6,996 nt of DNA from Verrucomicrobiales bacterium (lineage in GTDB: Bacteria; Verrucomicrobiota; Verrucomicrobiia; Verrucomicrobiales; DEV007), in contig QIKC01000194.1 in NCBI GenBank assembly GCA_003232855.1, positions 1-6,996 of the forward strand, in the 5' to 3' direction. Positions 1-6,996 of the stretch are shown here, one piece after another. Below the pieces are notes generated by a model. The model was not told where the DNA came from, made no database searches, and saw only the letters and a list, made by a program, of their open reading frames with translations. Numbering within the stretch: position 1 is the first letter of the stretch; the number at the start of each line of letters is the position of its first letter. A program made the translations under genes and the position numbers.

Positions 1-1862
1 AATCCGCCACCGCGCCCGGCCTCTACATCGTCGAGGCGCCGATGGGCGAGGGAAAAACCGAAGCCGCCCTCGCCGCCGCCTACCAGCTCTGGGATCGCGG
101 CCACCACCACGGCCTCTACTTTGGTCTCCCCACCCAGCTCACCAGCGAGCGTATCCACGACCGGCTGCAACCCTTCCTCGACCGCGCCATCACTTCGGAC
201 GGCGCGCGCCTAACACTCGTCCACGGCCACGCCTGGCTCAAGGACGACCTCCGCATTCTCGATGTCGCCCCCACCTTACGCTCCCCGGATGATTTCGAAC
301 GCATCGACGCGCGGCGCTGGTTCACCTCATCGCGCCGCCCGCTGCTCGCCCCCTTCGGCGTCGGCACCATCGACCAGGCGCTGATGGCCACCATGTCCGT
401 CAAGCACGCCGGCCTGCGCCTCTTTGCCCTCGGCGGGAAAGTCGTCGTGCTCGATGAGGTTCACTCCTTCGATCCCTACACCGGCCGGCTCATCGACGCC
501 CTCGTGAAACGCCTGCTCAATCTCAACTGCTCCGTCATCGTCCTCTCCGCAACCCTCAGCACAGCGCGCCGCCGCGAGCTCTTAGAGCATGGCGCGGGTC
601 GCACCGAAACAAATCAAAGTGATGCCTACCCGCTGCTGACAGTCGCCCATCACGGCGATACCGAAACGCAGGCCATCCCCTTTGATCCCGACCCCAAGCT
701 CGAACGCCGGGTCGGCATCGACATCTGCCCGCCCGATTCCGAAGTTCCCCTCGCCGCCGCGGTCGAAGCCGCAGAGGCGGGCGCCGCCGTATTGATCGTC
801 CGCAACACCGTCGCCCTCGCCCAACAGACATACGACCAGCTCAAATCCGCCTGCCGCACCGGGGTCGATACCGGCCTGCTGCACAGTCGGTTCACGCCGT
901 TGGATCGCGACGCCATCGAGATCGAATGGCTCGCCCGTTTCGGCAAGGGCGCCACCACCCGCGGCCGTTGCATTCTCGTCGCCACCCAAATCGTCGAGCA
1001 ATCCGTCGATATCGATGCCGACCTTCTCATCTCCGACCTCGCGCCGAGCGACCTCCTCATCCAGCGCCTCGGTCGCCTCCATCGCCATCGCGACAACGAT
1101 CCGACACGTCCCGCGCGCGTCCGACAAGCCAGGCTCATCCTCCTCGACCCGCTGACCGGAACCGAGCCCGACGCCCGCGCCATCAAGGACGCGCTCGCCC
1201 CACATCATTTCATCTATCCCCCCTACGCGCTCCTGCGCAGCTCCGCCCGATGGCGCGACCTCGGTGGCGCCATCGCGCTCCCCGCCGACATCCGCCAAGT
1301 GATCGAATCGACCCACGCACCCCTGTCCGACCAGCCCGCCGCATGGGCCGAATTGCAAGCACAGCAAGACGACCAGATCCAGAAAAAAATCAACACCGCC
1401 CAGGTTCGCAGCAACCCGCTCGCACGGATTCCGCCCATCGACGATTCCGAAAACAACATTAACTTCGGCACCCGCTGGGCCGGGCAGTCCTCGGCGCTCA
1501 TCGTGTTGTGCAAATCGCAACCCGCTGGAGACGGCAGGCGCATCACCTTCCTCGATGGCGATTCCCACGAGGTCGAATTTTTCTGCTGGTCCATCGACCT
1601 CGCCAAAGCCCTCCACCGCAACGCCGTCAAAGTGCCGCGTTGGCAGATCGCCGAGGCGCTGCCCGACGCCCCTGATTGGTTGACCCAGCACATCTCCGAC
1701 GCCGTGATCGGCATCGTCGGCGACGGCGGCGAAATCGAATTTCAAACCACCGCCGATCTCCCCGGCATCCTAAAATACGACGCCCGCCATGGGGCTCGAT
1801 TTTGGAGGATCCAAAAACCGTCCTCCACATCAGCAGATGATGAGGAGGACGGCTGGAATTAA
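1..1862 (+). CDS. cas3: Cas3 helicase-nuclease, 3' part (5' truncated by window edge)
   Basis: Cas3 is the ATP-dependent 3'-5' single-strand DNA translocase and nuclease that Cascade recruits to degrade target DNA. The reading frame is open from base 3, with no start in the window. The ATG at 42 lies inside the Walker A motif (APMGEGKT, 36-59), so it is not the start. Superfamily 2 helicase motifs follow in order: Ia-like LPTQLTSERI (about 129-158), DEVH box (453-464), SAT (546-554), motif V around ATQIVEQSVDID (about 984-1019), and motif VI QRLGRLHRH (1062-1088). The N-terminal HD nuclease domain, normally about 250-300 residues, must lie upstream. The roughly 600 residues after Walker A fit the family length and include the accessory C-terminal domain. 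The final acidic tail (SADDEEDG) is encoded by a hairpin that is a good minus-strand terminator, an unusual dual use. No T-tract follows any hairpin on the + strand, so no intrinsic cas3 terminator is seen. Identification is secure. Confidence 0.97.
   Translation, partial: SATAPGLYIVEAPMGEGKTEAALAAAYQLWDRGHHHGLYFGLPTQLTSERIHDRLQPFLDRAITSDGARLTLVHGHAWLKDDLRILDVAPTLRSPDDFERIDARRWFTSSRRPLLAPFGVGTIDQALMATMSVKHAGLRLFALGGKVVVLDEVHSFDPYTGRLIDALVKRLLNLNCSVIVLSATLSTARRRELLEHGAGRTETNQSDAYPLLTVAHHGDTETQAIPFDPDPKLERRVGIDICPPDSEVPLAAAVEAAEAGAAVLIVRNTVALAQQTYDQLKSACRTGVDTGLLHSRFTPLDRDAIEIEWLARFGKGATTRGRCILVATQIVEQSVDIDADLLISDLAPSDLLIQRLGRLHRHRDNDPTRPARVRQARLILLDPLTGTEPDARAIKDALAPHHFIYPPYALLRSSARWRDLGGAIALPADIRQVIESTHAPLSDQPAAWAELQAQQDDQIQKKINTAQVRSNPLARIPPIDDSENNINFGTRWAGQSSALIVLCKSQPAGDGRRITFLDGDSHEVEFFCWSIDLAKALHRNAVKVPRWQIAEALPDAPDWLTQHISDAVIGIVGDGGEIEFQTTADLPGILKYDARHGARFWRIQKPSSTSADDEEDGWN
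1813..1852 (-). terminator. Intrinsic terminator of the minus-strand RNA, inside the cas3 3' end
   Basis: Read on the minus strand, CCGTCCTCC (1852-1844) pairs perfectly with GGAGGACGG (1826-1818). Inside it, after one T/T mismatch, CATCA (1842-1838) pairs with TGATG (1832-1828) around a 5-nt loop. TTTTT (1817-1813) follows at once. On the + strand the hairpin is followed by CTGGAATT, so the terminator works only for minus-strand transcription. No minus-strand protein gene precedes it; the only plausible client is the crRNA-like RNA. It is embedded in cas3 coding sequence, so both functions constrain the same bases. Confidence 0.85.
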
Positions 1863-1885
1863 TGCCCCAGTGAGCTGGGGAAGAG
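1857..1885 (-). repeat. Degenerate type I-E CRISPR repeat, distal copy
   Basis: On the minus strand this begins CTCTTCCCCAG and carries a perfect hairpin CCCCAG-CTCA-CTGGGG (1880-1865). The 8-nt gap between CCCC and GGGG is that of type I-E repeats such as the E. coli one. Only about 12 of 29 positions match the proximal copy, nearly all in TTCCCCA and the TGGGG stem. The last 8 nt (CATTAATT) are no longer handle-like. The copy overlaps the cas3 stop codon (1860-1862). It sits one I-E repeat-spacer period (62 bp) from the proximal copy and would supply the 3' hairpin of the mature RNA. Confidence 0.72.
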
Positions 1886-1918
1886 ACCGTGATCAACTGT
1901 AAAATCGTCAGTCAATAC

Positions 1919-1947
1919 TGGGTCATCCCCATGAGTGTGGGGAATTT
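1919..1947 (-). repeat. Degenerate type I-E CRISPR repeat, proximal copy with handle
   Basis: Minus-strand sequence begins AAATTCCCCACACTCA and ends TGGGGATGACCCA. It shares the frame of the common I-E repeat (xxxTTCCCC, 8 nt, GGGGATxAxCCx). The stem is TCCCCA/TGGGGA (1943-1938 with 1931-1926). Eight nucleotides follow GGGG (ATGACCCA, 1926-1919), exactly the length of the Cas6e-generated 5' handle. This is the better preserved of the two copies. Orientation is judged from the TTCCCC...GGGGATGA polarity. Confidence 0.8.
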
Positions 1948-1964
1948 GTCCGCATAATTACACC

Positions 1965-1970
1965 ATTATA
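1965..1970 (-). promoter_or_regulatory. Minus-strand -10 box for the crRNA-like RNA
   Basis: A perfect TATAAT on the minus strand, about 17 bp before the proximal repeat, placing transcription start near 1958 with a leader of about 10 nt. No good -35 is visible: the 17-bp-spaced hexamer (1993-1988) reads GGTGTT. The guide's own target site reaches 1990, so Cascade bound there would touch this promoter too. Confidence 0.6.
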
Positions 1971-1989
1971 TCGTTTCAACACCGTTAAA

Positions 1990-2024
1990 CACCCGATAGT
2001 TCTTAAATCATCAATTAATACCTT
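1990..2024 (-). promoter_or_regulatory. Predicted Cascade target site with AAG PAM, upstream of casA
   Basis: Minus strand: AAG at 2024-2022, then GTATTAATTGATGATTTAA (2021-2003). Against the guide, positions 1-5, 7, 9-11, 13-17 and 19 match; 6, 8, 12 and 18 do not. Beyond position 19 pairing is near random. AAG is the canonical type I-E PAM, and positions 6, 12 and 18 are not read because every sixth base of the guide is flipped out in Cascade. Partial pairing of this kind is expected to give binding without Cas3 cleavage. The site lies 90-120 bp before the casA start, in the only plausible control region for the Cascade operon. Confidence 0.72.
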
Positions 2025-2034
2025 AAAAAAATAA

Positions 2035-2063
2035 TTGACCAGCTATTGATTTTGGTGTTCACT
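2035..2063 (+). promoter_or_regulatory. Candidate casA operon promoter (weak)
   Basis: TTGACC (2035-2040) matches the -35 consensus at 5 of 6 positions, but the hexamer 17 bp on, TTCACT (2058-2063), is a poor -10. An alternative is AATAAT (2030-2035, 5 of 6 to TATAAT) with a poor -35, TCATCA (2008-2013), inside the predicted Cascade target. The stretch 1950-2060 is strikingly AT-rich compared with its surroundings, as expected of a promoter region. The exact start cannot be fixed by eye. Confidence 0.3.
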
Positions 2064-2110: not shown

Positions 2111-3613
2111 ATGAAATTCGACCTAACCACCGATGCCTGGATTCCCATAAGGAACGCCGACGGCACATCTCGCCTCGTTTCGCTCATTGATCTCTTCGCT
2201 GGGGCGAAGAAGATAGCCGATCTCGACCTTCGCCCCCACGAGCGGGTCTCGGTGATGCGCCTGCTCGTCTGCATCGCCCAAGGTGCCGGAGGGATCCCGG
2301 ATGACGACTGGGAGCAATTCGAAGAATCTTTCGCCGAAAAATCCGTCGCCTACCTCCGCCGCGAGGACATCGCCCGCCATTTTGAGCTGTTCGGCGACGG
2401 GCCGCGCTTTCTCCAATTGCCCGTTACGGCGGAGAACCCGGTGTCCGCCAGCAAGCTCTTCCCCCGGCTCGCCTCCGGCAACAATTCCACCGTGCTCGAT
2501 CACGACGGCGGCGAGCTGCGATCTTTTGGCGCCGATGCGCTCGCGCTCGCCCTGCTCACTTTCCAAAATTTCTATCCGCTTTACGGTGCCGGTTACAAAG
2601 GCCGCGGCCCCTGCGTTGATTTCAACGGCCTGCATACTTTGCTGGTCGGCGAGACCTTACACCAGTCCATCATCTTCAACTGCCTCGACGCCCCCACGCT
2701 CGAAGGCTTCTCTGGAGAGGTCGGTCGCCCAGTTTGGGAACAGTACCCCGACAGTCCGAACGATTCCGCCGCGGTGGTCAACGCCACAGCCACCTACCTC
2801 GGTCGCCTCGCGCCTCTGCATCGCAGCGTTCGCCTCTGCGACGACGGCACCGCCTTCCACCTCGTCAAAGAATCGCTCATTTATCCACCCTTCGACGAAT
2901 ACTCCCGCGAGCCCTCGACCACCATCGTCATCCTCGGGAAAGGCGACAAGCAAGCACCGCGCCTGCTCTCCGCACGGCTCGATCAAGCCGTCTGGCGGCA
3001 ACTGCACGCGCTCACCGTGCTCCGGCGCGAAGCGCGGTCGGCAGCCTCAGCCCCCGCCGTGTTGGAAAGCTTTCGGCAGAACCACAGCGATCACCCCTGC
3101 CGCATTTGGACAGGCGCCCTCGTCGCCGACAACGCAAAAATTCTCGATGTCATCGAATCAACCTTCGACATGCCCGAAGCCATCTTCGCCGAAGGCGGCA
3201 GGACCACCTACGAACAAGGCGTCGGGCACGCCGAGTATTGGAAGTTCCAACTGCACAAAGCCGTCGTCGCCTACGGCAAAAAAATGATGCGGGACAAGCC
3301 CTCCTCCCGCGCCGCCACGACCCATTACTGGAACGCCCTCGATCAGGCCAGCGGCGTGCTCTTGAAGGTCATCCAGAACCCCGAACTCCCAGATGGCAAG
3401 AAGCCCGACGGCACCGGTCGCCAGTTCGGCCACGGCTCCACCGACCCGTGGTCTGCGTTGGTGAGGGAATCTGTCCGCGAAGCCTATTCCTTCGCCTGCC
3501 CGCGGCGCACCCCGCGTCACCTCGAAGCCTACGCCGCCGGCCTGCGCGCCCTCTATCACAAGCCGAAGGCGAAGAAAAAAGCTGTAGCCAAGAAAGTCGC
3601 CGCCACTTCCTAA
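2111..3613 (+). CDS. casA: Cascade large subunit CasA (Cas8e/Cse1), type I-E
   Basis: Large subunit of Cascade: it recognises the PAM, helps open the DNA and provides the docking surface for Cas3. The 500-residue product is close to E. coli CasA (502). It opens MKFDLTTDAWIPIRNADG, the family signature of an N-terminal TDxWIPV-like motif, followed by a typical Cse1 fold sequence (LFAGAKKIADLDLRPHE, then RLLVCIAQGA). ATG 2111 is chosen because it puts this motif at the N-terminus. An in-frame ATG at 2084, preceded by GGTGG (2074-2078), would add 9 residues and has the better Shine-Dalgarno. The start region CAAATTCCCCA (2101-2111) is identical to minus-strand bases 1948-1938 at the proximal CRISPR-like repeat. 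The C-terminus ends in a lysine/alanine-rich tail (about residues 484-500), which may be a nonspecific nucleic-acid-binding extension (inference). First gene of the probable Cascade operon and likely the regulated one. Confidence 0.95.
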   Translation: MKFDLTTDAWIPIRNADGTSRLVSLIDLFAGAKKIADLDLRPHERVSVMRLLVCIAQGAGGIPDDDWEQFEESFAEKSVAYLRREDIARHFELFGDGPRFLQLPVTAENPVSASKLFPRLASGNNSTVLDHDGGELRSFGADALALALLTFQNFYPLYGAGYKGRGPCVDFNGLHTLLVGETLHQSIIFNCLDAPTLEGFSGEVGRPVWEQYPDSPNDSAAVVNATATYLGRLAPLHRSVRLCDDGTAFHLVKESLIYPPFDEYSREPSTTIVILGKGDKQAPRLLSARLDQAVWRQLHALTVLRREARSAASAPAVLESFRQNHSDHPCRIWTGALVADNAKILDVIESTFDMPEAIFAEGGRTTYEQGVGHAEYWKFQLHKAVVAYGKKMMRDKPSSRAATTHYWNALDQASGVLLKVIQNPELPDGKKPDGTGRQFGHGSTDPWSALVRESVREAYSFACPRRTPRHLEAYAAGLRALYHKPKAKKKAVAKKVAATS

Positions 3614-3630
3614 GATAAAACTAACAAATT

Positions 3631-4167
3631 ATGAGCAAAAAAGAAAAATACCAGCAAGACGCCGAGGCCTTCGTCGCCCAGCTCGCCCCCTACGCCCCGC
3701 GTCCCGGAGCCGATCCCCACCGCGGCGATCGCGCTCTGCTCAAGCGCTACTGGAGTCCGGCCACCCGCGGTTACGCCCTGCCCGTGTTGGGGCGGCTGCG
3801 CGCCATCGGCAACGACGCGAAAACCATCACCGCCGCCCTATTCGCCGTGCATCCACAGCACAAAGACATCACGTCCTTCGGCGAAACGTGCCGCCGGGTC
3901 GCCGGTAAGAACCGCGACACTTTCGAGCCCCACTTCCGCCGCCTGCTCGCCTGCGAGACGCTCGACGAACTGGCCGTCCAGCTCCCCCGGCTCGTCAAAC
4001 GTGCCGAGCGCGGAGGCGCGCCGATCAACTTCGTCCAGCTCCTCCTCGACCTCGGCGGATGGAGGTTCTACGCCGAGGACATCAAGACCCGCTGGGCGAA
4101 AGATTTCTGGCAAGCACCCGACCCAGACGTCCCCGCAAACACGGAACTCCAATCCGCGAAATCATGA
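3631..4167 (+). CDS. casB: Cascade small subunit CasB (Cse2)
   Basis: Cse2 forms the dimeric belly of Cascade, which stabilises the displaced strand and the crRNA-DNA hybrid. The 178-residue product carries the family's landmarks: RGDRALLKRYW (31-41) with the basic residues typical of the N-terminal helix, HFRRLLAC (101-108), PINFVQLLLDLGGW (131-144) and RWAKDFW (154-160). It starts 17 nt after the casA stop, with an A-rich leader (AAACTAACAAATT) and no Shine-Dalgarno. Its stop overlaps the cas6e start as ATGA (4164-4167), suggesting translational coupling. The N-terminal KKEK segment is a short basic extension. Identification is by sequence motifs and position together. Confidence 0.93.
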   Translation: MSKKEKYQQDAEAFVAQLAPYAPRPGADPHRGDRALLKRYWSPATRGYALPVLGRLRAIGNDAKTITAALFAVHPQHKDITSFGETCRRVAGKNRDTFEPHFRRLLACETLDELAVQLPRLVKRAERGGAPINFVQLLLDLGGWRFYAEDIKTRWAKDFWQAPDPDVPANTELQSAKS

Positions 4168-4769
4168 GCCTATTCCTAACCAAAGTCGAAATCGACCACC
4201 AGACCGCGCACTTGACCGGCCTGCGCGACGCCTACGACTGGCACCAGAAAATCTGGCACGCCTTCCCCGGGCGCGACGGCGAGCCGCGCGACTTCCTCAC
4301 CCGCCTCGATGCGGTCGATGACCACTTGCGCCTGCTCCTGCTTTCCAAAGCGGAGCCCACCCGCCCCGACTGGTGCCCCGAGTCCGCCTGGAAATCTAAA
4401 ACTATATCGGAAGACTTCCTCGGCCACGCCAGCTACGGGTTCAGCCTAGTCGCTAACGCAACTAAAAAAATTCGTAACGAGAGCAAAAACGGCCGCCGCA
4501 TTCCCCTGACCAAGCGCGAGGATCTCGTCGCATGGATCGGTCGGAAAGGGGAGTCCGGCGGATTTTCAATCGAACCCTCTAGCCTGCGCACCATCGGGCG
4601 CCCTCGTCAACAGTTCATCAAAAGAGGCAAAGCCGGCCGCCACGACGCCACTGAATTCCGCGGCATCCTCACCGTCACCGATCGCGAAAAATTCGCCGCC
4701 ATCTTCGAAAAAGGCATCGGCACCGCCAAAGCCTTCGGCTTCGGCATGCTAGTCATTTCCCCAATCTGA
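4164..4769 (+). CDS. cas6e: Cas6e crRNA-processing endoribonuclease (CasE/Cse3)
   Basis: Cas6e cuts pre-crRNA at the base of the repeat hairpin and stays on the 3' stem as a Cascade subunit. The 201-residue product is close to E. coli CasE (199). YDWHQKIWHAFPGR (24-37) aligns with E. coli YQLHQGLWHLFPNR, making His27 the likely catalytic base and Tyr24 its partner, as in the T. thermophilus enzyme. The C-terminal glycine-rich loop GIGTAKAFGFG (184-194) is the ferredoxin-like RNA-binding signature, and the protein ends ...VISPI like CasE ...SLAPL. The start at 4164 overlaps the casB stop by 4 nt; an upstream in-frame ATG at 4059 would add 35 unrelated residues. It should process both normal pre-crRNA and the minus-strand crRNA-like RNA described above (inference). 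Its stop codon lies inside the left repeat of the S23 cassette. Confidence 0.95.
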   Translation: MSLFLTKVEIDHQTAHLTGLRDAYDWHQKIWHAFPGRDGEPRDFLTRLDAVDDHLRLLLLSKAEPTRPDWCPESAWKSKTISEDFLGHASYGFSLVANATKKIRNESKNGRRIPLTKREDLVAWIGRKGESGGFSIEPSSLRTIGRPRQQFIKRGKAGRHDATEFRGILTVTDREKFAAIFEKGIGTAKAFGFGMLVISPI

Positions 4770-4794
4770 AATCTGAGATCTAAAATTTCAAATC
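4764..4794 (+). repeat. AT-rich repeat, copy A (left edge of S23 cassette)
   Basis: AATCTGAAATCTGAGATC followed by TAAAATTTCAAATC. It shares TTTCAAATC with copy B, and its reverse complement (..TTTTAGATCTCAGATTTCAG..) resembles copy C, so it is partly inverted relative to the others. It begins at the cas6e stop codon (TGA 4767-4769) and ends 7 nt before the S23-family start. It is made of short palindromic words (AGATCT, AAATTT-like). Confidence 0.65.
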
Positions 4795-4801
4795 ATCCCA
4801 A

Positions 4802-5335
4802 ATGACCTACAAACGCTTCGAGGATCTCCCAGTATGGCGAGAGGCGATCTGCCTCGCCGAAGGCGTCTATGACCTCACCGAAAAAGCGGGGAAAGCCATC
4901 TCTTGGTCAGGCCGTGATCAGATCGAACGCGCCGCCCTCTCCGTCTCCAACAACATCGCCGAAGGCTTCGAGCGCGGCACCACCAACGAACTCCTCTACT
5001 TCCTCTACATCGCTAGAGGCTCGGCCGGCGAAGTCCGCTCCATGCTCTGCTTCTTCGAGCGCAGGTGCAGCCTCTCAAATTTCAAATCTGATATTTCAGA
5101 TCTCAAACCCACCGCCGAATCCTGCTCCCGCCAGCTCCGTGCATGGGCGGACAAACTTCAGAATTCCGACATCAAAGGCCAGCGCCATCTCAACGCCGCC
5201 TCCCGATCCAACTGGGAAAAACGCGATTCCGCGCAGAAATCACGATCCGTTTTCGAAGAAACCCAGCGCGACATCATTGCAAAACTCCCAGCCGAACATC
5301 CCCTCCGTCAACAGTGGGACGCTAGGCAGAAATAA
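4802..5335 (+). CDS. Four-helix-bundle protein, S23/IVP family, inside the cas operon
   Basis: Residues 1-88 match the S23 / 23S rRNA intervening-sequence protein family: FEDLPVWREAI (6-16), a GRDQIERAALSVSNNIAEGFERG core (37-59) and LLYFLYIARGSAGEVRSML (64-82), with the family's RAaxSvxxNIAEG and iARGSxxE motifs. Members are small all-alpha proteins; a related fold is Avd of diversity-generating retroelements, which binds nucleic acid. Their cellular role is mostly unknown. At 177 residues this one is longer than the usual roughly 120: residues 91-103 (LSNFKSDISDLKP) are encoded by an AT-rich repeat, and a charged tail of about 50 residues (from about 126) is not recognised. It is flanked by two more repeat copies, so it looks like an inserted cassette. 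It is co-oriented with cas genes and probably co-transcribed. No known Cascade role; any link to CRISPR function is speculative. Confidence 0.85.
   Translation: MTYKRFEDLPVWREAICLAEGVYDLTEKAGKAISWSGRDQIERAALSVSNNIAEGFERGTTNELLYFLYIARGSAGEVRSMLCFFERRCSLSNFKSDISDLKPTAESCSRQLRAWADKLQNSDIKGQRHLNAASRSNWEKRDSAQKSRSVFEETQRDIIAKLPAEHPLRQQWDARQK
5073..5109 (+). repeat. AT-rich repeat, copy B (inside the S23-family gene)
   Basis: Starts TCTCAAATTTCAAATCTG and ends ATTTCAGATCTCAAACC (5093-5109). The last 17 nt are identical to copy C (5342-5358). Copy C equals copy B minus 14 internal bases lying between two TTTCA words. It is translated in frame as residues 91-103 of the S23-family protein, in the probable linker before the last helix. 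Confidence 0.8.
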
Positions 5336-5358
5336 TCTCAAATTTCAGATCTCAAACC
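5336..5358 (+). repeat. AT-rich repeat, copy C (right edge of S23 cassette)
   Basis: TCTCAAATTTCA followed by GATCTCAAACC, starting on the base right after the S23-family stop codon (5333-5335). It shares a 17-nt exact match with copy B. The remaining 16 nt to the cas7e start (ATAACTAAAAACAG-like) hold no Shine-Dalgarno. Confidence 0.75.
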
Positions 5359-5374
5359 GATAACTAAAAACAGA

Positions 5375-6403
5375 ATGAAACTACTAGAACTCCATATCCT
5401 ACAATCCTTCCCCGTCTCCTGCCTCAACCGCGATGATGTCGGCGCGCCTAAATCTGCCATCTTCGGCGGCGTTGCCCGTGCCCGCATCTCCTCCCAGTCG
5501 CTCAAACGCGCCGTTCGCCTCCATGCCCGTGACGAGCTCGGTGCCAAAGGCTTTACCGGCATCCGCTCGCGCATCTTGAAACAGCCGTTTATCGACGCTC
5601 TCGAAAAACACGGACTCGAAAAAGATGTCGAGAAAGCCGCAGACGCCATCTGTGCAGTGTTTTCCAAACAGGACGGCAAGGACAAAGCCCAAGTCACCAC
5701 CGCAGTCTATCTCTCGCCAGACGAGATCGACCAAATCGCTAAAGCCGTCGCCGAAGGTGGGGATGCGAAAAAGGCCAGCAAGAAAGCCCAGCGCAACGAC
5801 GCTGCCGACATCGCCCTCTTCGGCCGCATGATCGCCAACGACGCCACCCTCAACGTCGAGGGCGCCGCCATGTTTTCCCACGCCCTCTCCACCCACAAGG
5901 TCGCCAACGACATCGACTTCTTCACCGCCGTCGATGACCGCAAAACCGACGCCGAAGACGCTGGCGCTGGCATGATGGGCACCCTCGAATTCAACAGCGC
6001 CTGCTACTACCGCTACGCCGCACTTAACCTCGACCTCCTGGCCGATGAAAAACACCTCGGCGGCCTGTCTGCCGAAGAACGCGGGGCGGTCGTCGATGCC
6101 TTCGTGCGCGCCACCTTACTCGCCGTCCCCGGCGCGCGGAAAAATTCCATGAACGCCCACACCGTGCCCTCCTTCGTCCTCGGCACCATCAAGGAAAAAG
6201 GCCAGCCCGTTCAGTTGGTCAACGCCTTCGAGAAGCCCGTTTTCCAGAAAGGCATGGGAATAGTCGAAGCCTCGATCGAAGGCCTCACCGCCGAGCACGA
6301 CAAGCTGAAAGCCACCTGGGGCATGACCACCGCTGCGGAAGTCGCCCTCCCCGACACCGACCTTGAAACCTTCTGCTTCACCCTCGTCAAACATGTCAGC
6401 TGA
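5375..6403 (+). CDS. cas7e: Cascade backbone subunit Cas7e (CasC/Cse4)
   Basis: Six copies of Cas7e form the helical backbone that holds the crRNA guide and flips out every sixth base. The 342-residue product is slightly shorter than E. coli CasC (363). Clear family signature near the N-terminus: SCLNRDDVGAPKSAIFGG (15-32) and ARISSQSLKRA (36-46), the RNA-binding palm region. A later conserved segment, KNSMNAHTVPSFVLG (about 6141-6185), is also typical. It starts 39 nt after the S23-family gene with an A-rich leader and no Shine-Dalgarno. Its end overlaps cas5e by 11 nt. The sixth-base periodicity set by this subunit is relevant to the mismatch pattern of the predicted regulatory guide. Confidence 0.96.
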   Translation: MKLLELHILQSFPVSCLNRDDVGAPKSAIFGGVARARISSQSLKRAVRLHARDELGAKGFTGIRSRILKQPFIDALEKHGLEKDVEKAADAICAVFSKQDGKDKAQVTTAVYLSPDEIDQIAKAVAEGGDAKKASKKAQRNDAADIALFGRMIANDATLNVEGAAMFSHALSTHKVANDIDFFTAVDDRKTDAEDAGAGMMGTLEFNSACYYRYAALNLDLLADEKHLGGLSAEERGAVVDAFVRATLLAVPGARKNSMNAHTVPSFVLGTIKEKGQPVQLVNAFEKPVFQKGMGIVEASIEGLTAEHDKLKATWGMTTAAEVALPDTDLETFCFTLVKHVS

Positions 6404-6996
6404 AGCCCTCGCCATCTACCTCGACGCCCCGCTACAATCGTGGGGCGTCGCCTCGCAGTTCCAGCGCCGCGATACCGAAGCGCATCCGAGCAAAAGTGCC
6501 GTGCTCGGCATGGTCGCCGCAGCCCTCGGCATCGACAAACACGCCCCCGGCGAGAGAGAGAAGCTCGCGCCGCTCGCCGCGCTGGCGTTCAGCAGCTACC
6601 GACTACCCGGACGCGCCATTACCCGACTCGAAGATTTTCACACCATCGGTGGTGGCTTCGACAAGAAGAACCCGCTCGAGGTCGGCCACATCCCCCGCAA
6701 GGCCAGCGGTGGGAGTTTCGGTACCGTTATCACCCGGCGCACCTACCTAAACGACGCGAAATTCATCGCTCTCCTCGAAGGCGACCCGGCTACCCTCGAT
6801 CAGATTTCCAACGCTCTGCTAAACCCGGTCTGGGGTGTTTGGTTCGGGCGTAAATGCTGCCTCCCCGCATCGCCACTGACTCCCACACGCGCCGCTGATC
6901 TTGCGACGGCTCTGACGGAAATATTTGATCGCATTGGCCTTGTCCTGAAACCTGAAGCCATCGGAAAACTCCAAGCGTACCGCGAGTTCGGCGAAG
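6393..6996 (+). CDS. cas5e: Cascade subunit Cas5e (CasD), 3' truncated by window edge
   Basis: Cas5e binds the crRNA 5' handle and caps the foot of Cascade next to CasA. The frame is open from ATG 6393 to the end of the window, giving 201 codons without a stop. Signature segments are LAIYLDAPLQSWG (6-18; compare E. coli LRLAGPMQAWG) and HPSKSAVLGMVAAALGI (31-47; compare FPTRSGLLGLLGACLGI). The family is about 220-250 residues, so only the last few tens are missing. It starts 11 nt inside the end of cas7e, in another frame, indicating coupled translation. The following gene is not visible; cas1 would be a normal neighbour. Confidence 0.94.
   Translation, partial: MSAEALAIYLDAPLQSWGVASQFQRRDTEAHPSKSAVLGMVAAALGIDKHAPGEREKLAPLAALAFSSYRLPGRAITRLEDFHTIGGGFDKKNPLEVGHIPRKASGGSFGTVITRRTYLNDAKFIALLEGDPATLDQISNALLNPVWGVWFGRKCCLPASPLTPTRAADLATALTEIFDRIGLVLKPEAIGKLQAYREFGE

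What the first reader, a model, noticed from the sequence alone, without database searches (positions are those of the whole stretch)
1886..2024. Guide matches a PAM-flanked site in the same intergenic region, with mismatches at flipped-out positions
With the guide start fixed independently by the 8-nt handle rule (1918), its first 19 nt match 2021-2003 at 15 of 19 positions, next to a perfect AAG PAM (2024-2022). Mismatches are at 6, 8, 12 and 18; Cascade does not read 6, 12 or 18, so 15 of the 16 read positions pair. Matching then collapses, the design expected for binding without Cas3 cutting. With equal base frequencies a 15/19 match is about one in a million per site; AT-richness weakens this, but the PAM and fixed register strengthen it. 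Predicted effect: Cascade represses its own operon when in excess, and relieves repression when crRNAs or phage targets occupy it.
Basis: partly seen in the sequence, partly recalled or inferred. Interest (0 to 1): 0.95.

Follow-up and report, generated by a model that had tools for sequence, protein, structure and literature searches.

The report
CRISPR guide targeting its own operon
Beside a bacterium's CRISPR immune genes lies a one-guide mini-CRISPR whose guide matches a site just in front of those genes, and because seven other bacterial lineages carry the same pairing in different letters, the immune complex likely uses it to turn its own production down.

Summary
On the minus strand of the cas3-casA gap lies a degenerate repeat-guide-repeat unit. 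Its guide starts at 1918 and matches 2021-2003 at 15 of 19 positions beside an AAG PAM. The gap has three AAG sites; chance of such a match is about 2e-7.

Relatives decide the matter. Of 8 non-E. coli loci with a cas3-casA gap over 100 nt, 7 carry the unit. Guides and targets differ between lineages, yet each guide fits its own gap best. Across eight lineages mismatches gather at positions 6 (6 of 8) and 12 (7 of 8), which Cascade does not read; positions 1-5 never mismatch. A -35-like TTG starts 6-12 nt beyond the PAM in 8 of 8.

This is the anatomy of CreR, the published RNA by which type I-B, I-E and V-A effectors repress their own cas genes: a new member of a known kind. Repression itself is inferred.

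Bonus: the E. coli K-12 cas3-casA gap, home of the 'anti-Pcas' transcript whose role two reviews call unknown, holds the same unit. I could not read the original CreR paper to see whether that is already reported.

The parts
1919..1947 (-). first degenerate CRISPR repeat of the unit, ending in handle ATGACCCA
   Evidence: 22 of 29 identical to the genome's array repeat; hairpin when folded alone
1886..1918 (-). 33-nt guide (spacer)
   Evidence: lies between the two repeats; first 17 nt pair with the operator at 14 of 15 read positions
1857..1885 (-). second, more degenerate repeat; overlaps the cas3 stop codon
   Evidence: 13 of 29 identical to the array repeat, hairpin kept
2003..2021 (-). 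operator: protospacer part that matches guide positions 1-19 (15 of 19)
2022..2024 (-). AAG PAM of the operator
   Evidence: AAG flanks the best match of any flank in 7 of 8 lineages
1965..1970 (-). TATAAT, possible -10 of the guide RNA (predicted; no good -35)
   Evidence: read from sequence; the strict scan found no promoter
2035..2040 (+). TTGACC, possible -35 of the casA promoter, 10 nt beyond the PAM (predicted; weak -10)
   Evidence: a TTG at 6-12 nt beyond the PAM in 8 of 8 lineages; the strict scan found no promoter
42..1862 (+). cas3, cut at the contig start
   Evidence: NCBIfam cas3_core
2111..3613 (+). casA (cse1), first gene of the operon predicted to be regulated
   Evidence: TIGR02547
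3631..6996 (+). rest of the operon: casB 3631-4167, cas6e 4164-4769, four-helix-bundle gene 4802-5335, cas7 5375-6403, cas5 6393-end (cut)
   Evidence: NCBIfam matches

Best explanation
The cas3-casA gap carries a minus-strand, one-spacer degenerate CRISPR whose guide matches an AAG-flanked site in the same gap, and it likely works as a CreR-type cas-regulating RNA that would bring Cascade to the casA promoter and repress it. Predicted steps: the RNA starts near 1958 on the minus strand; Cas6e cuts it at the repeat hairpin and leaves the ATGACCCA handle; Cascade loaded with it recognises AAG at 2024-2022 and pairs over about 17 nt (14 of 15 read positions); its PAM side then lies against the putative -35 (TTGACC, 2035-2040) and keeps RNA polymerase off. 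Pairing stops at about position 17-19, so Cas3 would not be licensed to cut. When ordinary crRNAs or anti-CRISPR proteins take up Cascade, the repressor would fall and the casA operon would rise. Shown here: the unit, the match, the PAM, the co-variation and the conserved placement before a TTG. Inferred: transcription, processing, binding, repression, relief.
For: Unit and exact match; chance about 2e-7. Of 8 non-E. coli loci with a cas3-casA gap over 100 nt, 7 carry the unit, while no unit was found in the 54 loci where the genes abut. Swap test: each of 8 guides scores highest in its own gap, 10-15 of 15 read positions, against at most 10 elsewhere. Mismatches at positions 6 and 12: 13 of 16, against 14 of 120 at the other positions of 1-17, Fisher p 1.7e-8, with sites chosen on all 17 positions alike. 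AAG flanks the best match of any flank in 7 of 8 gaps. A TTG starts 6-12 nt beyond the PAM in 8 of 8 operators against 2 of 38 other CTT sites in the same gaps. Precedent: H. hubeiense CreA represses through pairs 1-5 and 7-11, with 6 and 12 free (PMC8501985, passages). E. coli Cascade binds with AAG plus a short seed, peaks in affinity by an 18-bp match and needs 18-25 bp or more for interference (PMC5904413, passages).
Against: Nothing here shows transcription or repression. Position 8, a read seed position, is mismatched in the window; in the CreA experiment any change at 1-5 or 7-11 abolished repression. In E. coli, off-target seed binding changed no local gene expression (PMC5904413 section 9). 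A strict sigma-70 scan finds no promoter in the gap. The whole 101-nt RNA folds best with the two repeats paired to each other, which could hinder processing. One locus with a long gap (L057) has no unit, and L047 reaches only p 0.044 when all 17 positions count.
Confidence: 0.84

Rival explanations
1. A decaying remnant: a spacer once taken from the promoter by Cas1-Cas2, now drifting without function.
For: The repeats are degenerate (22 and 13 of 29), and guide and operator are direct repeats of one stretch, as self-acquisition would leave them.
Against: Drift would scatter mismatches. Instead they gather at 6 and 12 while 1-5, 7 and 10 have none in eight lineages. In 4 of 4 other E. coli strains read, the guide differs from K-12 only at 12 and 28.
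Confidence: 0.07
2. The guide acts on the other side: Cascade controls the guide RNA's own divergent promoter, or activates casA, rather than repressing casA.
For: The operator lies between two opposed start regions; in L023 it runs straight into the first repeat.
Against: The distance from PAM to the casA-side TTG is held at 6-12 nt in 8 of 8, whereas the guide-to-target distance varies from 40 to 154 nt, so placement follows the casA side. I know of no precedent for activation.
Confidence: 0.06
3. A CreTA-like module: the guide silences a small toxin RNA in the gap instead of, or besides, casA.
For: CreA has the same anatomy. In L046 a tRNA-like RNA lies between the operator and casA.
Against: In the window only 87 nt separate the PAM from the casA start; no tRNA and no relevant Rfam match lies there. 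A very short toxin RNA cannot be excluded.
Confidence: 0.03
4. Chance similarity in AT-rich DNA.
For: The gap is richer in A+T than the window as a whole (39% against 61% G+C).
Against: 2.4e-7 at the gap's own composition; 0 of 100,000 shuffled guides; the same anatomy in seven other lineages.
Confidence: 0.001

Closest known systems
CreR, cas-regulating RNA of type I-B, I-E and V-A systems (Liu et al. 2023, Cell Host Microbe; not held; seen only through passages of PMC12737573, PMC13131331 and PMC12948488)
   Same: crRNA-like RNA from a mini-CRISPR beside the cas genes, partial match in the cas promoter region, predicted autorepression by the effector.
   Different: Pairing here is longer than the 10-nt seed in 7 of 8 lineages (13-15 of 15 read positions; L047 is seed-only). 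I could not compare with the I-E cases of the original paper.
CreA of CreTA modules (H. hubeiense, PMC8501985, passages seen)
   Same: Two degenerate repeats around a spacer, PAM-flanked target in a promoter, pairs at 1-5 and 7-11, 6 and 12 free.
   Different: CreA represses a toxin RNA; here the next gene is casA and no toxin was found.
tracr-L of S. pyogenes Cas9 (PMC8616872, passage)
   Same: A long-form guide RNA sends the effector to its own cas promoter with a short, 11-nt match.
   Different: Type II, tracrRNA-derived, unrelated RNA.
E. coli anti-Pcas transcript (PMC7074321 and PMC10011333, passages seen)
   Same: Antisense, just downstream of cas3. On that strand the K-12 gap holds a repeat with handle ATAAACCG, a guide and an AAG-flanked match.
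   Different: E. coli adds H-NS, LeuO and CRP control; those reviews call the role of anti-Pcas unknown.

Membership tests
CreR (type I-E) | Mini-CRISPR (degenerate repeat-spacer-repeat) beside the cas operon | tested here: met
   22 and 13 of 29 against the array repeat; hairpins kept
CreR (type I-E) | Partial, PAM-flanked seed match in front of the cas operon | tested here: met
   AAG, 9 of 10 seed and 14 of 15 read positions; mismatch at read position 8 noted
CreR (type I-E) | The match lies in the cas promoter | tested here: inconclusive
   TTGACC 10 nt beyond the PAM and a TTG at 6-12 nt in 8 of 8; strict promoter scan negative
CreR (type I-E) | RNA is made, processed by Cas6e and bound by Cascade | not testable with these tools
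   needs RNA sequencing and pull-down
CreR (type I-E) | Cascade-dependent repression, relieved by crRNAs or anti-CRISPR proteins | not testable with these tools
   needs reporters
CreTA | Toxin gene (creT) under the targeted promoter | tested here: inconclusive
   no tRNA or relevant Rfam match in the window gap; very short toxin RNAs would not be seen
Ordinary CRISPR array with self-targeting spacer | Near-identical repeats and near-full-length spacer match | tested here: not met
   repeats 22 and 13 of 29; beyond position 19 only 4 of 14 match

The most novel reading that the evidence does not exclude
The long cas3-casA gap of type I-E systems is in general a Cascade-operated switch, E. coli K-12 included: the anti-Pcas transcript of unknown role is a CreR whose guide (TTATTGGTCTTATTATC...) brings Cascade to an AAG-flanked operator 6 nt before a TTGAAA upstream of casA. 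In some Akkermansiaceae the same switch also governs a tRNA-like RNA ahead of casA.
Probability: 0.55. Interest if true: 0.82.

Novelty: new member of a known kind. Interest (0 to 1): 0.66.

Why it matters
Eight guide-operator pairs with unrelated letters obey one rule: PAM kept, positions 1-5 kept, every sixth position released, operator at a nearly fixed distance before a -35-like TTG. That is an evolutionary read-out of how Cascade pairs with DNA in the cell and a recipe for finding further cases. If repression is confirmed, it explains how type I-E bacteria keep Cascade in check and sense crRNA shortage or anti-CRISPR attack. It also gives the E. coli anti-Pcas RNA a testable role in a strain where every tool exists.

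Tried and rejected
Handle-free scan (part A): 73 entries (69 distinct; K-12 included), 420 nt upstream of casA, every guide start against every AAG site. Scores of 13 or more of 15: window, L021/L032, L023/L069, L046, L049, K-12, and L057, which is a tandem-repeat artefact. The scan missed L047 (10 of 15; found by the handle-and-hairpin scan) and L091 (outside the 420 nt; seen by eye in the printed gap, then tested). The handle-and-hairpin scan (part B) also lists chance matches of 8-9 of 10 in loci without a gap; I did not count them.

Searches treated minus-strand loci of the genome search as if already turned. I noticed this and corrected it; counts in this report use results from then on.

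The first position-bias test used sites picked while positions 6 and 12 were ignored, which favours the result. One search repeats it with sites picked on all 17 positions; the sites and the table are the same.

Six of 69 distinct loci could not be classed (L028, L035, L050, L068, L079, L080). A tblastn of K-12 CasA against plasmids gave 2 records, Vibrio and Photobacterium. In the second, casA follows cas5. In the first I only looked for handle motifs and pursued nothing. Rfam at gathering cut-off found nothing in the window; the gap alone gave one irrelevant sub-threshold match.

Full report
WHAT IS THERE. The window is the whole of contig C29 of a 1.82-Mb assembly, 62% complete. Its named CasA relatives are Verrucomicrobiota or PVC-group assemblies. 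It carries a type I-E cas operon: cas3 (cut at the contig start), casA, casB, cas6e, a four-helix-bundle gene, cas7 and cas5 (cut at the end). The same assembly holds a real array on contig C346 with repeat GATTTCCCCACCCGCGTGGGGATGGCCCG and 61-nt period. Between the cas3 stop (1862) and the casA start (2111) the minus strand carries a repeat copy (22 of 29), a 33-nt guide and a second, worse copy (13 of 29) that overlaps the cas3 stop. Each repeat folds as a hairpin on its own. Folded as one 101-nt RNA, however, the two repeats pair with each other (-31.2 kcal/mol, z -2.9), so clean processing is not guaranteed.

THE MATCH. The numbers in the finding check out: 15 of 19, mismatches at 6, 8, 12 and 18, AAG PAM, 4 of 14 beyond position 19. 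The gap has 3 AAG sites on both strands. P(at least 14 of 15 read positions) is 8e-8 per site. The 9 array spacers read reach at most 6 of 15. In the assembly the operator pattern with up to 3 mismatches occurs only at the target and at the guide.

RELATIVES. CasA loci came from genome contigs (7) and from whole-genome searches of the family (74 genomes), order (386), phylum (387), a sister family (13), class (384) and the order of L023 (322); the sets overlap. After minus-strand loci were turned, 73 entries gave 69 distinct loci, K-12 included. In 54 cas3 and casA lie under 40 nt apart, 9 have a gap over 100 nt, 6 could not be classed. Of the 9, 8 carry a minus-strand repeat-guide unit with an AAG-flanked match: window, L021/L032, L023/L069, L047, L046, L049, L091 and K-12. 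L057 does not; its gap is filled with short tandem repeats. In the 54 abutting loci, upstream of casA, I found no unit. L104, a close relative of L023 (385 of 400 nt at the cas3 end), has a 29-nt gap and no unit. So the whole control stretch is present in one and absent in the other.

CO-VARIATION. Guides and operators of different lineages do not resemble each other, but each guide finds its own operator. Own-gap seed scores are 9, 10, 10, 10, 10, 10, 8 and 9 of 10, for window, L021, L023, L047, L046, L049, L091 and K-12. In foreign gaps the best read score is 10 of 15, and the seed score reaches 8 of 10 twice. With all 17 positions counted alike and any flank allowed, the best match in the gap is the AAG-flanked one in 7 of 8; L047 is the exception. 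Shuffled-guide p at AAG sites: 0 of 100,000 for the window, L046 and L049; 1e-5 for L021; 4e-5 for L091; 7e-5 for E. coli E308; 1.4e-4 for L023; 0.044 for L047. Counting the seed alone, L047 gives 5e-5 and L091 0.016.

THE SIXTH-POSITION SIGNATURE. Over eight lineages, with E308 standing for E. coli, mismatches at positions 1-17 number 0,0,0,0,0,6,0,1,2,0,1,7,1,2,1,2,4. Positions 6 and 12 carry 13 of 16 possible mismatches, the other fifteen 14 of 120; Fisher p = 1.7e-8. L046 and L091 match at 6 and L049 at 12, so the rule is release, not a required mismatch. Every sixth position is flipped out in Cascade (PMC5904413, passage). In H. hubeiense CreA, positions 6 and 12 may change freely while 1-5 and 7-11 may not (PMC8501985, passages). 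By that standard the window's mismatch at 8 counts against full strength; its longer pairing may make up for it (inference).

PLACEMENT. In all eight, guide and target lie on the same strand, antisense to casA. A TTG starts 6-12 nt beyond the PAM on the casA side; L021 has a second one at 5. The hexamers include TTGACC (window, L023), TTGACA (L047) and TTGAAA (E. coli). Among the other 38 CTT sites of the same gaps, 2 have a TTG there. The 6-12 range was chosen after seeing the data. The guide-to-target distance varies from 40 to 154 nt. In L091 the target lies 619 nt before casA, and I did not establish what lies between. A strict sigma-70 scan finds no promoter in the window gap.

E. COLI. 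The 414-nt cas3-casA gap of K-12 holds CACCTTCCCTACTTAAGTAGGGATAAACCG, then the guide TTATTGGTCTTATTATC..., then a second hairpin, and AAG|TTATTCGTTTTATTATT. Of 5,426 complete genomes, 1,125 match this gap and 1,106 over at least 80%. I read four strains with a diverged gap (P276M, C325, AR_0061, E308). In 4 of 4 the guide differs from K-12 only at positions 12 and 28. In 3 of 4 the target also pairs at 17, where K-12 does not; in P276M pairing ends after position 13. Three of these four have cas3 or casA flagged as a pseudogene, so some of these systems may be decaying. In a fifth, ZH142, IS1 copies have removed the casA side. Two reviews place an anti-Pcas promoter just downstream of cas3 on the opposite strand and call its role or significance unknown; one gives a 150-200-nt transcript (PMC7074321 and PMC10011333, passages). 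I did not map its start against this unit.

WHAT IS KNOWN. [quoted passage not shown] PMC12948488, passage). The primary paper is not held. Eight searches of the held library (listings only) showed no title or abstract start that describes a CreR in E. coli K-12 or in Verrucomicrobiota. As the primary paper was not seen, I claim no priority for either.

VERDICT. The pairing is real and under selection, and the unit has the anatomy of a CreR. The step from binding site to repression is inferred. Because off-target seed binding in E. coli changed no local expression (PMC5904413 section 9), the placement before the casA side has to carry the argument until a reporter is run.

Noticed in passing
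L108 (E. coli K-12 NC_000913.3), cas3-casA gap, locus 9140-9553: A degenerate repeat with the K-12 handle ATAAACCG, a guide and an AAG-flanked match (13 of 15 read positions; 14 of 15 in strain E308) lie antisense in the gap, where reviews place the anti-Pcas transcript.
   Followed up: partly
L046 2101-2178 (-); weaker in L049 2127-2196 (-): Between the operator and casA, in casA sense, L046 holds a tRNA-like sequence (ARAGORN tRNA-Gln; Rfam tRNA 30.7 bits, cut-off 29). L049 has only sub-threshold tRNA-like matches. It could be a guide-controlled toxin, a processing site or an ordinary tRNA.
   Followed up: partly
L104 (gap before 1501) against L023/L069: Two close relatives differ by presence or absence of the whole guide-operator stretch; without it cas3 and casA lie 29 nt apart.
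   Followed up: partly
window 4802-5335, flanks 4758-4795, 5073-5109, 5334-5358: A four-helix-bundle gene (TIGR02436) sits between cas6e and cas7, with AAATTTCAAATCT-like repeats in and around it; it may be a mobile insert.
   Followed up: no
window 3631-6996: Gene order is casA-casB-cas6e-(insert)-cas7-cas5, whereas in E. coli K-12 cas6e (casE) follows casC and casD.
   Followed up: no
L091 (G814), cas3-casA gap of 797 nt: Guide unit and operator are present, but the operator is 619 nt before casA; the stretch between was not annotated.
   Followed up: no
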